From IMG/VR virus record IMGVR_UViG_3300032053_000169, positions 1-41,657 of that record: DNA of 41,657 bases, one strand, 5' to 3'. Both the position numbers and the translations under genes were made by a program. The DNA is from a virus. Every line of letters begins with the position of its first letter. The stretch's first letter is position 1. Shown here one piece after another: positions 117 through 41,563 of the stretch. The notes beneath the pieces were generated by a model that worked only from the letters and a program-made list of their open reading frames with translations, searched no databases and was not told the origin of the DNA.

Positions 117-136
117 AAAGGAGCAACCATGAGTGA
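117..136 (+). promoter_or_regulatory. Recurrent ribosome-binding cassette (first of seven)
   Basis: AAAGGAGCAACCATGAGT carries a strong Shine-Dalgarno eight bases before ATG. Near-identical copies precede the genes at 129, 434, 661, 904 (AGGGAGCAACC), 1323 (AAAGGATCAACC), 41264 and 41560. It fixes the start of the gene at 129 over an upstream in-frame ATG at 84 that lacks a Shine-Dalgarno. Confidence 0.8.
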
Positions 137-3195: not shown

Positions 3196-3570
3196 ATGGT
3201 CAAAAATAAACGGGCTATTTGCCCCATGACTGATCGCAGGACTACAGCCATGATTGACAAAGACCCGTTCGACTTTTCGCTAATAACTTATTTATGGGTA
3301 ATTCTGATCTCCTCGTGGGGTGCTACAGTGAATCTAATCGGCAAGATTAAGAGGCGCGAAGTACAAAGCAGATTTATTTTAGAGTTTATCGGTGAGATAA
3401 TTACATCAAGCTTTGTGGGCATAATCACCTTTTGGTTATGTCAGGCGGGAAATATCTCGCCAGTATGGACATCCGTATTCGTAGCAGTAAGTGGACACAT
3501 GGGTACTCGTGCTTTGTATGGAATAGAGCAACAGGTATGGAAAAGGCTGATGAAGGTATTTGAGCCTTGA
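3196..3570 (+). CDS. Holin with three predicted membrane segments
   Basis: This 124-aa membrane protein has three hydrophobic segments, roughly residues 29-48, 65-83 and 88-105 (YLWVILISSWG, FVGIITFWLC, and WTSVFVAVSG), and resembles the LydA/superfamily III holins that lie directly before endolysin genes. It forms the pore that releases or activates the endolysin. The start is ambiguous. The ATG at 3196 gives a basic N-terminus (KNKR, RR); an ATG at 3250 has a better Shine-Dalgarno (AGGA at 3238-3241) and gives 106 aa. A further in-frame ATG is at 3226. The stop overlaps the next start as TTGA. Confidence 0.75.
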   Translation: MVKNKRAICPMTDRRTTAMIDKDPFDFSLITYLWVILISSWGATVNLIGKIKRREVQSRFILEFIGEIITSSFVGIITFWLCQAGNISPVWTSVFVAVSGHMGTRALYGIEQQVWKRLMKVFEP

Positions 3571-4082
3571 TACCAGAACAGTACAAATGGCTAGACAGGG
3601 AAGTCGCCCCCAAAATGTTAATGGAGGCGATAACGTTACTCGGCACAAAGGAAGTGATCGGCTCGCTCAACAACCCAGTGATTATGGATTGGGCGCAAGC
3701 CTTAAAGATTAAAGAATACAACATGGACAGCATCCCTTGGTGCGGTCTATTCATCGCGTACCTCGCGCTCATCACAAATAAAACCCTTCCCACCTCACCG
3801 CTATGGGCGTTGTCATGGAGCAAATGGGGCGAAGGATGCGAGCCAGAACTCGGATGTGTGCTTACCTTTAAGCGCAACGGAGGTGGTCATGTTGGATTGT
3901 ATGTTGGTGAAGACCTTGAGTGCTATCACGTTCTCGGTGGCAATCAAGGCGACTCCGTATCCATTACCCGAATCAAAAAATCCCGCCTTGACGCAGCCCG
4001 TTGTCATTACAAAAACAAACCCACAACGATCAGAAAAATACACCTATCGCCAGTTGGGTCGGTGTCAACAAACGAAGCTTGA
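3567..4082 (+). CDS. Endolysin, TIGR02594 / NlpC-P60-like amidase
   Basis: This 171-aa protein starts at a TTG that overlaps the holin stop, with GAAGG about 10 bases upstream; the conserved opening (YKWLDRE, then LLGTKEVIG, NNPVIMDW) supports this start over the ATG at 3615. The core reads DSIPWCGLFIAYLA, then a GCVLTFKR segment and GGGHVGLYVGED with HVLGGNQGD. Cys in PWCG and His in GGHVG are the expected catalytic pair of the papain-like NlpC/P60 and CHAP peptidoglycan hydrolases; this arrangement is that of the TIGR02594 family. No signal peptide is seen, so export depends on the holin. No spanin gene was found nearby. Confidence 0.85.
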   Translation: MIPEQYKWLDREVAPKMLMEAITLLGTKEVIGSLNNPVIMDWAQALKIKEYNMDSIPWCGLFIAYLALITNKTLPTSPLWALSWSKWGEGCEPELGCVLTFKRNGGGHVGLYVGEDLECYHVLGGNQGDSVSITRIKKSRLDAARCHYKNKPTTIRKIHLSPVGSVSTNEA

Positions 4083-4140: not shown

Positions 4141-4362
4141 ATGTTTGCTTTCTTAGCTATGTTTGGTGGATACAAAACACACGCATTGGTGGTAACTTCA
4201 ATCGTGGCGCAGGCAGTTAAATACTTTAAGCCTGAGTTGGCATCACAATGCGATATGGTATCTGCGGGTGCTTTATCATTAACGCCAACAACGATTCGGA
4301 TGGGTGTGCAGGCTGCAACCAATCAGATCATGGCAGCCATTCCTTCAAAGAGTGGTAAGTAA
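4141..4362 (+). CDS. Small hydrophobic protein, possible membrane protein
   Basis: This 73-aa protein follows an AGAGGA ribosome site seven bases before the ATG. The first 25 residues are hydrophobic (MFAFLAMFGG, then ALVVTSIVAQAV) and a second weaker hydrophobic stretch lies at about residues 40-66. There is no lipobox or clear signal cleavage site. Its position behind holin and endolysin genes would fit an accessory lysis or inner-membrane protein, but no family was recognised. It ends one base before the phosphatase-like gene. Confidence 0.6.
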   Translation: MFAFLAMFGGYKTHALVVTSIVAQAVKYFKPELASQCDMVSAGALSLTPTTIRMGVQAATNQIMAAIPSKSGK

Positions 4363-4363
4363 T

Positions 4364-5065
4364 ATGCCAACGCCAGAGGTTACTTACGACCCAAACCAGA
4401 CCTACCTTGTCGATACCGTTGTTGGTTCGTCAGGTACTTCTTATTTGATTAGAGGTAACCTGCCCATCCTTGAAGATGGCACGTTCGCATATAATGAATT
4501 GAACGCAAAGCTACAAACTTTGATTCCAAACTTTAATCTTAGTACGCACACCGTAATGGATATCAGCCTGATCGACAACCAAGGTGAGCTACCAAGTTTA
4601 GAGTGTGAGTTTGATTCATTCGGTGCGGGTGCGCCACCTACAGTTTGGACTCCATACGCTAACGGTGGCTCGGCAGTATTATTTGCGGGCTATGGCGATG
4701 GTTCGGTAACTGGTGATGGTGGCGCAAGCAGTGGAATGGGTTCACTTATGTGGACTCCCGTTCAAGGATGCGAGCCTTCCAGTTCATGTGGAAGCATTGA
4801 GCCGACTGATTATGACTTCGATGGCGTGGTTAATAACCTAAGAACGCTCATGGAATCGGATGCAAGTTTGGTGATTTATTATCACTGCATGAACGGGCAT
4901 GACCGAGCAGGTAGCTTAACGTGCGGATACCAAATGAAGTATTTGAATTGGTCAATGGAAGCAGCTATGACTGCGGGCGTTGTGATCATGGGACATGGTT
5001 GGCATCATCCGTATAAAAACCTGATCGAGTGGTATGCGGGAACGCTTCCACAGCCATGTGAATAA
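4364..5065 (+). CDS. Protein-tyrosine/dual-specificity phosphatase-like protein
   Basis: This 233-aa protein starts at 4364, one base after the previous stop; an in-frame extension to 4304 lies inside that gene. Residues 169-184 read LVIYYHCMNGHDRAGS, matching the cysteine-phosphatase P-loop HCxxGxxRxG with Cys175 and Arg181 in place. The N-terminal YLIRGNLPILEDG, followed by TVMDISL, resembles the opening strand of cyclin-phosphatase folds, and LTCGYQMKYLNWS plus a C-terminal EWYAGTL resemble the helices after the P-loop. The residue after Arg is Ala rather than the usual Ser/Thr, so activity may be altered. A Gly/Ser-rich stretch (about residues 85-145) separates the halves. Assignment is by motif; substrate unknown. 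It is unusual in a phage. Confidence 0.7.
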   Translation: MPTPEVTYDPNQTYLVDTVVGSSGTSYLIRGNLPILEDGTFAYNELNAKLQTLIPNFNLSTHTVMDISLIDNQGELPSLECEFDSFGAGAPPTVWTPYANGGSAVLFAGYGDGSVTGDGGASSGMGSLMWTPVQGCEPSSSCGSIEPTDYDFDGVVNNLRTLMESDASLVIYYHCMNGHDRAGSLTCGYQMKYLNWSMEAAMTAGVVIMGHGWHHPYKNLIEWYAGTLPQPCE

Positions 5066-5464: not shown

Positions 5465-5711
5465 CGGCTCAGTTTTATATCGCATCAAGCAAGCAATAAG
5501 ATTAATCATAAAGGGAAGGACAGCGCGGGAACAACGGCAGGGGGATGCGTTACTCCACCTGATGACCCAAATGACTGACTACATGACACCAATTCAAATG
5601 ATGAAGCTCATCAACGAGATGCAAAAGTACCAAAACCCAAACCAAAAGGTTGATATGACAGGCGTTGTATCTATAAGCGAATTCAAATCAAGGATTAAAA
5701 AGAATGTCTGA
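5433..5711 (+). CDS. Hypothetical protein upstream of the ParB-methyltransferase gene
   Basis: This 92-aa protein starts at ATG 5433, with GGAGAAG at 5420-5426 in good position; an ATG at 5427 in the same frame sits right against the Shine-Dalgarno and is less likely. It has a basic N-terminal part (YRIKQAIRLIIKGRTAREQR) and a helical Met/Gln-rich middle (YMTPIQMMKLINEMQKYQ). No family recognised. It overlaps the next gene by eight bases, so the two are likely translated together and it may act in the same DNA-modification or packaging step. Confidence 0.6.
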   Translation: MILLSAPQHTNGSVLYRIKQAIRLIIKGRTAREQRQGDALLHLMTQMTDYMTPIQMMKLINEMQKYQNPNQKVDMTGVVSISEFKSRIKKNV

Positions 5712-6945
5712 TATGCCAGAGGTAGAGATTGAGTACCGTGACATTGATACCCTAATACCATACGCCCGCAATCCACGCAAAAACGATCACGTTGTTGATA
5801 AGTTTGCATCAATGATTCACGAGTTTGGCTTCCGCATACCCATCAACGTCAAGAAGGATGGCACGATTGTCGATGGTCACCTTCGTTACAAGGCAGCCAA
5901 GAAGCTCGGTTTGAAAATGTTACCCGTTACCTACGTTGACGATATGGGCGAGGGAAAGCTTAAAGCCTTCCGCATCGCCATCAACAAATCGGCAGAGTTG
6001 GCTGATTGGGAAAACGAATTGCTCGATGCCGAGTTTGATGAGTTATTGGAAATGGGCATCGACCTCGATATAACGGGGTTCGACTTTGACGAGCGTAAAG
6101 CGATCAAGATCGAAGGCATAGCCGATGGCTTAACCGATGAGGACTACGTGCCAGAGGTACGCCCCGACCCCATCAGCAAGGAGGGCGATACGTGGCTCTT
6201 GGGCAACCACCGCCTTATGTGTGGGGACAGTACCAATCAGGAAGCCGTGGAAGCCCTGTGTGCGGGCGTGAAGGTCGACCTTTTCCTAACCGACCCACCC
6301 TACAACGTCAATTACGAGGGCAAATCCAAAAACCGCGACAAGATTATGAACGACCACATGGATAACGATACCTTCAGGCAATTCCTGCGGGATGCCTTTA
6401 TCACTGCCGACACTGTTATGAAGGCAGGGGGTGTGTTTTATATCTGGCATGGGGATGGCGAAGGGTACAACTTCCGAGGCGCGTGTAAAGATGTCGGGTG
6501 GACAGTACGCCAATGCTTAATCTGGAACAAAGACAGCATGGTATTGGGTCGACAAGACTATCACTGGAAGCACGAGCCATGTTTGTACGGATGGAAGGAT
6601 GGCGCAGGACACTTATGGGCAAGTGACCGCAAGCAAGTAACCATCATGGATTTCAAACGCCCCGCGAGAAGTGATATCCACCCCACAATGAAGCCAGTGG
6701 AGTTGTTTGAATACCAAATGCTCAACAACACCAAGGGCAGTGATATCGTATTAGATTTGTTCGGTGGGTCAGGCACAACCATAATCGCAGCCGAAAAGAA
6801 TGGTCGTCACGGCTATTTGATGGAGCTAGACCCTAAGTTCTGTGACGTTATCGTAAGACGATGGCAGGAGTACACTGGCAAGGAAGCCACGCTCGAATCA
6901 ACGGGTGAAACATTCGCACAACTCGACAAGGATAAAGCAGCATGA
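5704..6945 (+). CDS. ParB/Srx-domain DNA methyltransferase fusion
   Basis: This 413-aa protein joins an N-terminal ParB-like nuclease domain (about residues 8-100; ARNPRKND, then IVDGHLRYKAAKKLG) to a C-terminal N6-adenine/N4-cytosine methyltransferase. The catalytic DPPY is at residues 197-200, before the AdoMet-binding segment LDLFGGSGTT near residue 355, the order typical of beta-class enzymes. It would methylate phage DNA, most simply for protection from host restriction. It directly precedes and overlaps the small terminase gene (ATGA), a common placement for these fusions. Target sequence cannot be read from the protein. No partner endonuclease is adjacent, so it is an orphan enzyme. 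Confidence 0.9.
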   Translation: MSDMPEVEIEYRDIDTLIPYARNPRKNDHVVDKFASMIHEFGFRIPINVKKDGTIVDGHLRYKAAKKLGLKMLPVTYVDDMGEGKLKAFRIAINKSAELADWENELLDAEFDELLEMGIDLDITGFDFDERKAIKIEGIADGLTDEDYVPEVRPDPISKEGDTWLLGNHRLMCGDSTNQEAVEALCAGVKVDLFLTDPPYNVNYEGKSKNRDKIMNDHMDNDTFRQFLRDAFITADTVMKAGGVFYIWHGDGEGYNFRGACKDVGWTVRQCLIWNKDSMVLGRQDYHWKHEPCLYGWKDGAGHLWASDRKQVTIMDFKRPARSDIHPTMKPVELFEYQMLNNTKGSDIVLDLFGGSGTTIIAAEKNGRHGYLMELDPKFCDVIVRRWQEYTGKEATLESTGETFAQLDKDKAA

Positions 6946-19795: not shown

Positions 19796-20287
19796 ATGCA
19801 ACCGTATGATGACTTATTCGCAAAGCATGGCGCAACAGCACGTTCAACCAATGGCTGTTCTCCTGCGAACCCGCACTATTTTTGGTGTGCTGAACGTGTA
19901 GCACCCAACAGTTCTGTGCTTGATGTCGGTTCAGGTCTTGGGTGGTTGAAGCCACACTTGCCAGAAGGTGTGACCTATAAAGGGATTGACGCTTGCCAAG
20001 GGCTTGCAGAATCAACGGGTGATGAACACTGCGACATTCTAAGCTATACGGGCGACAAGGTTGATTATGTTTGTTGCTTCGGTGTGTTGGTTAAGAACGA
20101 CCCACGCGAACAGCCTGTCAATCTTCAAGCGGTGGCAGACAAATTGAAAAGCCTTGCCAATGTCGCTGTGCTGTTCGCGGTGTGCTTGGATGGGTTCAGC
20201 TTGCAGGAGGTGGAGACTGCGTTCGGTGGATTGGATGAAGTATCACCAATCACGTTGGGCGAACACTTCTGTCGGGTGAATGTTTAA
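19796..20287 (+). CDS. Class I SAM-dependent methyltransferase-like protein
   Basis: This 163-aa protein has VLDVGSGLGWLKPHLPEG (motif I) followed by YKGIDAC (acidic end of strand 2), a CDILSYTGDKVDYVCCFGVL region (motif IV position) and a downstream helix NLQAVADKLK. There is no DPPY, so it is not obviously a DNA adenine methylase; a protein, glycan or small-molecule target is more likely. It is short for the fold. It lies between a DUF2793 gene and the tail terminator, apart from other DNA-modification genes, so it may modify the adjacent adhesin or a surface glycan. That is speculation from context. Confidence 0.75.
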   Translation: MQPYDDLFAKHGATARSTNGCSPANPHYFWCAERVAPNSSVLDVGSGLGWLKPHLPEGVTYKGIDACQGLAESTGDEHCDILSYTGDKVDYVCCFGVLVKNDPREQPVNLQAVADKLKSLANVAVLFAVCLDGFSLQEVETAFGGLDEVSPITLGEHFCRVNV

Positions 20288-40923: not shown

Positions 40924-41267
40924 TGTCCGAGCATAACGAGCAGGCAGCACTTATCTCTTGGTTTGATATTCAGATCAAGAGTGAGCGCATCTTTGCTATA
41001 CCCAACGCAGCCAAACGCAGCGTCAGGTTAGCCTCGTACATGAAAGCGGAAGGCATGAGGTCGGGTGTTCCTGACCTCTTTATGCCAACACCGAACGCAA
41101 AGTATCACGGACTGTTTATTGAAATGAAATGGAAGAAGAACAAATTAACAGAGGCTCAAAGCGAGTGGGCAGACTACCTAAACAGCCGAGGTTTTATGGC
41201 TACCGCCTGTTGGAGCTTTGCCGAGGCGAAGGAAGTAATAATTAACTATTTAAAGGAGCAACCATGA
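40923..41267 (+). CDS. VRR-NUC domain nuclease
   Basis: This 114-aa protein overlaps the previous stop (TAATG). It has SEHNEQAALISWFDIQ, then IFAIPNAAKRSVRLASYMKA, EGMRSGVPDLFMPTP, GLFIEMKWKKNKLTEAQSEW and RGFMATACWSF. Catalytic positions E (NEQ), D (VPDL), E-x-K (IEMK) and Q (EAQ) are all present, the arrangement of the VRR-NUC (PD-(D/E)XK) family that includes phage Holliday-junction resolvase-like enzymes. It probably resolves branched DNA before packaging. The end NYLKEQP is encoded by the ribosome cassette of the next gene. Confidence 0.9.
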   Translation: MSEHNEQAALISWFDIQIKSERIFAIPNAAKRSVRLASYMKAEGMRSGVPDLFMPTPNAKYHGLFIEMKWKKNKLTEAQSEWADYLNSRGFMATACWSFAEAKEVIINYLKEQP

Positions 41268-41563
41268 GTGCGAGAGAATCGTTTGAAAAGTGGATAACCG
41301 TATTTTATAACAATGAAGTGCCTAGAAAATTAGATGATGGAGTTTATATTGATAATGATATACGCACACGATGGATAGCATGGCAAGCATCACGCGCACA
41401 GGCTATTGATGAGTGCTTACAATTACATGAGTCGATTAAAGTAACGCCTCTACATGAGTCGATTAAAATAACGCCTCCAGATAATGATGATTGGATTGAC
41501 GCCATTATTGACAGTCGTGAGGCATATCAACAAGCAATCAAACAGCTAAAGGAGCAACCATGA
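41264..41563 (+). CDS. Small early protein with ALDEC-like motif and internal repeat
   Basis: This 99-aa protein starts behind AAAGGAGCAACC in an ATGA overlap. It has ESFEKWITVF near the start, SRAQAIDECLQ in the middle, an internal 9-residue duplication (LHESIKVTP then LHESIKITP) and the end AIKQLKEQP. It is a paralogue of the 129 gene by layout and shared motifs. The duplication is exact at the DNA level except for one base, so it is recent. Function unknown. Confidence 0.72.
   Translation: MSARESFEKWITVFYNNEVPRKLDDGVYIDNDIRTRWIAWQASRAQAIDECLQLHESIKVTPLHESIKITPPDNDDWIDAIIDSREAYQQAIKQLKEQP
41424..41477 (+). repeat. 27-bp tandem duplication inside the 41264 gene
   Basis: Positions 41424-41450 and 41451-41477 are 27-bp units beginning TACATGAGTCGATTAAA and differing at a single base (G/A). 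The period is a multiple of three, so the reading frame is kept, adding nine residues. Confidence 0.9.

What the first reader, a model, noticed from the sequence alone, without database searches (positions are those of the whole stretch)
4364..5065. Phage-encoded protein-tyrosine/dual-specificity phosphatase-like protein next to the lysis genes
The 233-aa product carries HCMNGHDRAG (Cys175, Arg181), an exact fit to the cysteine-phosphatase loop HCxxGxxRxG, with plausible flanking fold elements (TVMDISL upstream, YQMKYLN and EWYAGTL downstream). Such enzymes are rare in tailed phages and are better known from eukaryotes and from bacteria that live in them. The residue after Arg is Ala, not Ser/Thr, so it could be a slow enzyme, a substrate trap or a phosphoinositide/phosphotyrosine binder. 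The family resemblance is established knowledge; a role in blocking host tyrosine-kinase signalling or in a host-of-host interaction is inference.
Basis: partly seen in the sequence, partly recalled or inferred. Interest (0 to 1): 0.8.

Follow-up and report, generated by a model that had tools for sequence, protein, structure and literature searches.

The report
Diverged phosphatase gene in a phage
A virus of bacteria carries a real gene for a cysteine-based phosphatase-type enzyme, part of a small family scattered among environmental phages and not in the protein-family libraries searched, but this copy has lost two residues that normally speed the reaction, so it may bind or trap a phosphorylated molecule rather than process it quickly.

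Summary
Window 4364-5065 (+) encodes 233 aa with HCMNGHDRAG at 174-183. Pfam DSPc matches (E=3.4e-5, below its cut-off), an AlphaFold2 model has the expected order of elements, and the leading Foldseek matches are cysteine phosphatases. Motif scans of IMG/VR found seven further members on phage contigs of 27-619 kb (25-35% identity to the six full-length ones). No relative appeared in sequenced phages or, with short patterns, in 84,980 bacterial and archaeal genomes.

The window copy is the outlier. All other members have Thr after the catalytic Arg (Ala here) and Glu in a WPD-loop-like W[WP]xIEG segment (Gln here). In PRL phosphatases the Ser/Thr-to-Ala change leaves a long-lived phosphocysteine (PMC10040874). 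A slow or trapping enzyme is the best guess. An enzyme for good leaving groups, such as RNA 5'-phosphates, is a serious rival, because RNA 5'-phosphatases are the nearest solved structures. The gene follows holin and endolysin genes, but no relative examined has lysis-gene neighbours, so a lysis role is unsupported. Blocking host kinases or acting on a host's host has no evidence.

The parts
4364..5065 (+). DSP/PTP-fold cysteine phosphatase-like protein, 233 aa (P0001)
   Evidence: Pfam DSPc E=3.4e-5; AlphaFold2 model pLDDT 70.8, pTM 0.75; Foldseek PTP/DSP matches; seven relatives
4883..4912 (+). P-loop HCMNGHDRAG, residues 174-183 (nucleophile Cys175, Arg181; Ala182 where the relatives have Thr)
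4751..4771 (+). WPD-loop-like segment WTPVQGC, residues 130-136; full-length relatives have WW[QP]IEGG; Gln134 replaces an invariant Glu
   Evidence: the strand-loop-helix position in the models fits the general-acid loop (assignment is inference)
4451..4465 (+). RGNLP, residues 30-34, N-terminal family motif (RGN[LF]P)
   Evidence: invariant R, G, N, P; end of strand 24-30
4141..4362 (+). 73-aa ORF directly upstream; its stop lies one base before the phosphatase ATG
   Evidence: no Pfam or PHROG match
3567..4082 (+). endolysin-like protein (TIGR02594)
   Evidence: 86.3 bits, cut-off 70.55; phrog_1259 and phrog_9589
3196..3570 (+). holin
   Evidence: phrog_785 E=8e-21
5704..6945 (+). ParB-N / DNA methyltransferase fusion, next large gene downstream
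   Evidence: PF01555 E=2.9e-26; phrog_498 E=8e-160

Best explanation
The gene encodes a stand-alone enzyme of the dual-specificity / protein-tyrosine phosphatase fold, carried as an accessory gene between the lysis and packaging genes of a tailed phage. Shown: the fold class (by prediction), the P-loop, and conservation of Cys175, Arg181, His174, Asn177, Gly178 and Asp180 in a family found on several unlike phage contigs. Inferred: Cys175 takes the phosphoryl group from a phosphorylated host or phage molecule. Because the Thr that helps hydrolyse the phosphocysteine is Ala182 here, and the Glu in the likely general-acid position is Gln134, release of phosphate is slow. The protein then behaves as a slow or single-turnover phosphatase, or as a phosphate-dependent binder (trap), rather than as an efficient enzyme. 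The substrate is unknown.
For: Pfam DSPc hit; the family profile against PDB sequences hits cysteine phosphatases in all 60 listed matches; AlphaFold2 element order and Foldseek; the relative L109 gives a better model (pLDDT 81.3, pTM 0.85) with 148 PDB matches at E<=1e-3, the 50 listed ones all cysteine phosphatases. Of 48 columns invariant in six full-length relatives P0001 keeps 31. By count, the P-loop stretch 172-183 keeps 8 of 9 such columns (only T182 changed, to A), whereas the WWxIEGG stretch keeps 2 of 6 (W131T, I133V, E134Q, G136C). Published: nearly all class-1 Cys phosphatases have Ser/Thr after the Arg; the Ala of PRLs goes with a long-lived phosphocysteine and burst kinetics, and reversion raises turnover (PMC10040874).
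Against: No activity was measured. Ser184 replaces an Ala of the relatives two residues on and could compensate for Ala182. Other acidic residues lie in or near the diverged loop (Glu137, Glu146, Asp149, Asp151, Asp153), and remote general acids are known (VHZ Glu134, TkPTP; PMC9038691). The loop is modelled with low confidence (residues 135-144 have pLDDT < 50), so the Glu/Gln134 assignment rests on alignment. From memory, not checked here: some active plant phosphoglucan phosphatases also have Ala after the Arg.
Confidence: 0.55

Rival explanations
1. It is an active phosphatase for substrates with a good leaving group, such as RNA 5'-tri/diphosphates or another phosphoanhydride, which need no general acid. 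The phage would use it to alter RNA 5' ends or a nucleotide signal.
For: Nearest solved sequences and folds are RNA 5'-phosphatases: phmmer of P0001 to mRNA-capping enzyme (E=0.0032), family profile E=7.7e-8, top Foldseek hits baculovirus RNA 5'-phosphatase and RNGTT. PMC9038691 lists such enzymes (baculovirus RNA 5'-phosphatase, PIR1, an mRNA-processing enzyme, Siw14) as PTPs lacking the classical WPD acid. Two related phages carry an RtcB RNA ligase within 6 kb.
Against: The RNGTT loop HCTHGFNRTG (printed) is not shared: P0001 has Met-Asn for Thr-His, Asp for Asn and Ala for Thr. The other family members keep a Glu at the loop position. Missing Thr would still slow the second chemical step.
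Confidence: 0.22
2. It is an ordinary active DSP acting on host phosphoproteins or phosphorylated polysaccharide, with another loop carboxylate as acid and Ser184 standing in for Thr182.
For: All invariant P-loop residues except Thr182 are kept; acidic residues near the loop; TGA in relatives becomes AGS here, so a hydroxyl is kept two residues on.
Against: Thr182 and Glu134 are invariant in the other full-length members over 34-79% identity, which argues that they matter in this family.
Confidence: 0.13
3. It is a decaying copy with no function.
For: It is the most diverged member (25-35% identity) and has lost two catalytic-type residues. A broken relative exists: L159/L091 carries a 17-bp tandem repeat and frame breaks.
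Against: Intact 233-codon ORF whose codon usage fits the phage's other genes only in this frame, packed one base from the upstream gene, with the P-loop kept almost intact despite overall divergence.
Confidence: 0.07
4. It dampens host tyrosine-kinase signalling or acts on a eukaryotic host of the bacterium.
For: Only the general use of PTP-fold proteins by some intracellular bacteria (established knowledge). SET-domain genes lie near the relatives in L110 and L161, but none was seen in this window.
Against: No obvious N-terminal hydrophobic signal stretch (inspection only); annotated portal relatives come mostly from phages of Pseudomonas, Vibrio, Acinetobacter, Xanthomonas and similar hosts, not of obligate intracellular bacteria; no eukaryote-type domain was noticed elsewhere in the window.
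Confidence: 0.03

Closest known systems
DSPc family, Pfam PF00782 (dual-specificity phosphatases)
   Same: P-loop HCx5R, strand-loop-helix arrangement, best Pfam match of P0001 and of all seven relatives
   Different: P0001 scores below the curated cut-off; extra N-terminal RGNLP motif and long variable region 90-145; Ala after Arg; Gln at the family's loop Glu
RNA 5'-phosphatase / capping-enzyme triphosphatases (RNGTT, baculovirus RNA 5'-phosphatase, PIR1)
   Same: Best solved matches by sequence and by fold; similar C-terminal helix pattern after the P-loop
   Different: P-loop HCMNGHDRAG against HCTHGFNRTG; about 12-15% identity over the fold alignment of P0001; no RNA context in the window
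PRL phosphatases (PTP4A)
   Same: Ala directly after the catalytic Arg; predicted slow phosphocysteine hydrolysis
   Different: No C-terminal prenylation motif (P0001 ends QPCE); eukaryotic; remote in sequence; human PRL-1 is only a lower-ranked fold match
Vibrio phage DSP-like proteins (PHROG 17568, labelled 'thymidylate synthase')
   Same: DSP-type phosphatases in tailed phages
   Different: About 150 aa, P-loop GCLGGIGRTG in Vibrio phage 29Fa.3, no RGNLP or WWxIEGG motifs; matched by relative L112 (E=1e-3), not by P0001

Membership tests
Class I cysteine phosphatase superfamily (PTP/DSP) | HCx5R P-loop with invariant Cys and Arg | tested here: met
   present and invariant in eight family members
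Class I cysteine phosphatase superfamily (PTP/DSP) | PTP fold, with the P-loop between a beta strand and an alpha helix | tested here: met
   (predicted models)
Class I cysteine phosphatase superfamily (PTP/DSP) | Ser/Thr after the catalytic Arg (present in nearly all members) | tested here: not met
   Ala182 in P0001; Thr in all seven relatives. PRLs are accepted members without it
Class I cysteine phosphatase superfamily (PTP/DSP) | Asp/Glu general acid in the WPD loop | tested here: inconclusive
   Gln134 at the aligned position of an invariant Glu; nearby acids could serve; loop modelled with low confidence
Class I cysteine phosphatase superfamily (PTP/DSP) | Phosphatase activity dependent on the P-loop Cys | not testable with these tools
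   needs purified protein
Pfam PF00782 DSPc | score above the curated cut-off (33.5 bits) | tested here: not met
   P0001 24.1 bits; relatives L110, L111, L112 and the L091 fragment 33.6-38.4 bits
RNA 5'-phosphatase (capping-enzyme type) | P-loop HCTHGxNRTG as seen in RNGTT | tested here: not met
   P0001 HCMNGHDRAG against HCTHGFNRTG
RNA 5'-phosphatase (capping-enzyme type) | release of phosphate from RNA 5' ends | not testable with these tools
   needs an assay
PRL (PTP4A) | Ala after catalytic Arg | tested here: met
   definition from PMC10040874
PRL (PTP4A) | C-terminal prenylation (CAAX) motif | tested here: not met
   C-terminus is QPCE

The most novel reading that the evidence does not exclude
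A phage-borne family of DSP-fold phosphatases, without a PHROG or NCBIfam model of its own, in which one lineage has turned the enzyme into a phosphocysteine-trapping or substrate-trapping protein by losing both the phosphocysteine-hydrolysing Thr and the loop Glu: a bacterial-virus parallel to eukaryotic PRL pseudophosphatases.
Probability: 0.35. Interest if true: 0.6.

Novelty: new variant of a known kind. Interest (0 to 1): 0.42.

Why it matters
Cysteine-based phosphatases are rarely discussed in tailed phages. This defines a small family with clear marks (RGN[LF]P, WW[QP]IEGG, HC[MLR]NG[TS]DRTG) on phage contigs from about 27 to 619 kb, and gives a natural comparison of members with and without the usual catalytic residues. 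If the window copy forms a stable phosphocysteine, it would suggest that phages use such proteins as phosphate-dependent traps, and the substrate would be a way into phosphosignalling or RNA-end control during infection.

Tried and rejected
Direct searches for P0001 in sequenced phages, IMG/VR exact peptides and GTDB genomes found no relative; plasmids gave one weak DSP hit, E=0.09. The patterns used are short, so absence from genomes is not proof. Portal relatives of the same phage group (80 loci) lack the gene: tblastn and PF00782 in 38 records (many are fragments). Most hits of the HCxNGxDRxG scan are chance or wrong-frame matches. L087/L113 is a different, shorter phage DSP and was left out of the family. 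One Pfam call failed for a wrong frame and was repeated without that protein. Searches for papers on phage-encoded PTPs or DSPs found nothing on this family. The host of the window phage was not identified.

Full report
What was checked. The window is the whole of an IMG/VR virus record of 41,657 bases, completeness not given. The ORF at 4364-5065 (+) encodes the 233-aa protein described, with HCMNGHDRAG at residues 174-183. The motif is found nowhere else in window ORFs of 60 aa or more and in 4 of 200,000 shuffles of the protein; codon usage favours the annotated frame, and gene GC (0.473) is that of the window (0.467). Sequence comparison alone gives DSPc at E=3.4e-5, below Pfam's curated score, and weak matches to mRNA-capping enzymes and PTPMT1 in the PDB.

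Finding a family. Searches with the single protein found no relatives. A degenerate DNA pattern for HCxNGxDRxG in IMG/VR returned 24 stretches, five of which carry true relatives. Alignment-based and second-motif scans added two more contigs and longer flanks. The family now has eight members: the window, L108 (619-kb contig), L109 (36 kb), L110 (27 kb), L111 (72 kb), L112 (225 kb), L161/L097 (73 kb) and L159/L091 (96 kb, frame-broken). Identities to P0001 are 25-35% for the six full-length ones; those share 34-79% among themselves. Shared marks are RGN[LF]P near the N-terminus, a W..[EQ]G segment before the catalytic helix, and the P-loop. All relatives hit PF00782, four of the seven above its cut-off. 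Those scanned against PHROGs match nothing informative (only the DSP-like phrog_17568, weakly).

Fold. An AlphaFold2 model of P0001 from the eight-sequence alignment has mean pLDDT 70.8 and pTM 0.75. It shows strand 169-175, then the P-loop, then helix 180-193, with the variable region 93-125 and loop 135-144 uncertain. Foldseek against the PDB returns cysteine phosphatases throughout the listed matches, led by RNA 5'-phosphatases; TM-scores normalised by target reach 0.63, those normalised by the query only about 0.35-0.46, so the match covers the core of the model and not its whole length. Viral matches are mostly DSPs and PTPs of giant and insect viruses and a few phages. The relative L109 models better (pLDDT 81.3, pTM 0.85), with 148 PDB matches at E<=1e-3 and target TM-scores up to 0.71.

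What is unusual in this copy. Of 48 columns invariant in the six full-length relatives, P0001 keeps 31, including D9, R30, G31, N32, D71, N72, W130, H174, C175, N177, G178, D180, R181 and G183. Among the 17 changed are Thr182 to Ala and Glu134 to Gln. Four of six such columns in the WWxIEGG segment are changed, against one of nine in the P-loop stretch. Nearly all class-1 Cys phosphatases have Ser/Thr after the Arg, helping to hydrolyse the phosphocysteine; PRLs have Ala there and show burst kinetics with a long-lived phosphocysteine (PMC10040874). The WWxIEG segment sits between a strand and the helix before the catalytic strand, where the WPD loop lies in PTPs, so its Glu is the likely general acid. 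That assignment is inference from alignment and model order, not from measured geometry. Together these changes favour a slow or trapping protein. Two cautions: TGA of the relatives is AGS here, which may compensate, and PTPs with displaced or absent loop acids exist, notably among RNA 5'-phosphatases and inositol-pyrophosphatases (PMC9038691).

Neighbourhood. Upstream lie a holin (3196-3570, phrog_785), an endolysin-like gene (3567-4082, TIGR02594) and a 73-aa ORF ending one base before the phosphatase ATG. Downstream are small ORFs, a ParB-methyltransferase (5704-6945), terminase and portal. The gene is thus an insert in or after the lysis module. In the relatives the neighbours differ: a short gene that looks GIY-YIG-like by eye and genes of unknown function in L109 and L110, a few kb from a major head protein gene; DNA methyltransferases on both sides in L111; genes of unknown function in L112 and L161. 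No lysis gene was identified beside them, so the lysis setting in the window is probably incidental. DNA methyltransferases near the gene in the window and in L111 may be chance, since such genes are common in phages.

Where it stands. It works like, and by predicted fold belongs to, the cysteine phosphatases. It is not a PRL (no prenylation motif) and does not carry the capping-enzyme P-loop. I place it as a diverged member of a small, apparently unnamed phage subfamily of DSP-like proteins. Function beyond phosphate chemistry is unknown; slow/trap behaviour is the favoured reading at about even odds. Host-signalling and host-of-host roles have no positive evidence.

Noticed in passing
window 118-132, 423-437, 650-664, 893-907, 1312-1326, 41253-41267, 41549-41563: AAGGAGCAACCATGA recurs at gene junctions (7 matches at up to 2 mismatches, 0.24 expected): a Shine-Dalgarno sequence plus overlapping stop/start, so several upstream proteins end in KEQP or KDQP. 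Its presence at both ends suggests one gene cluster split by the record's ends.
   Followed up: partly
L162:2348-2809 (Vibrio phage 29Fa.3, UYD21540.1): Annotated 'thymidylate synthase' but is a DSP-type phosphatase with GCLGGIGRTG (Pfam Tc-R-P 36.9 bits, above cut-off); PHROG 17568 carries the same label.
   Followed up: yes
L161:32-502, L110:3329-3709 (-), L110:4309-5055: SET-domain proteins (E=6e-14 and 2e-12) and a papain-like peptidase match (E=8e-4, just below cut-off) near the phosphatase gene in related phage contigs.
   Followed up: partly
L108:753-2300, L161:5574-6998: RtcB RNA ligase genes within about 6 kb of the phosphatase gene.
   Followed up: no
L159:7900-8800 (same gene as in L091): Family member interrupted by a 17-bp tandem repeat and frame breaks; pseudogene or assembly error.
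   Followed up: no
L163 (CAKLQH020000002.1): Record called Acinetobacter phage MD-2021a carries secA, ahpC, folC and accD, so it looks like bacterial chromosome rather than phage.
   Followed up: no
window 19796-20287: Possible SAM-dependent methyltransferase inside the virion structural gene region (Methyltransf_23, E=3e-5, below cut-off).
   Followed up: no
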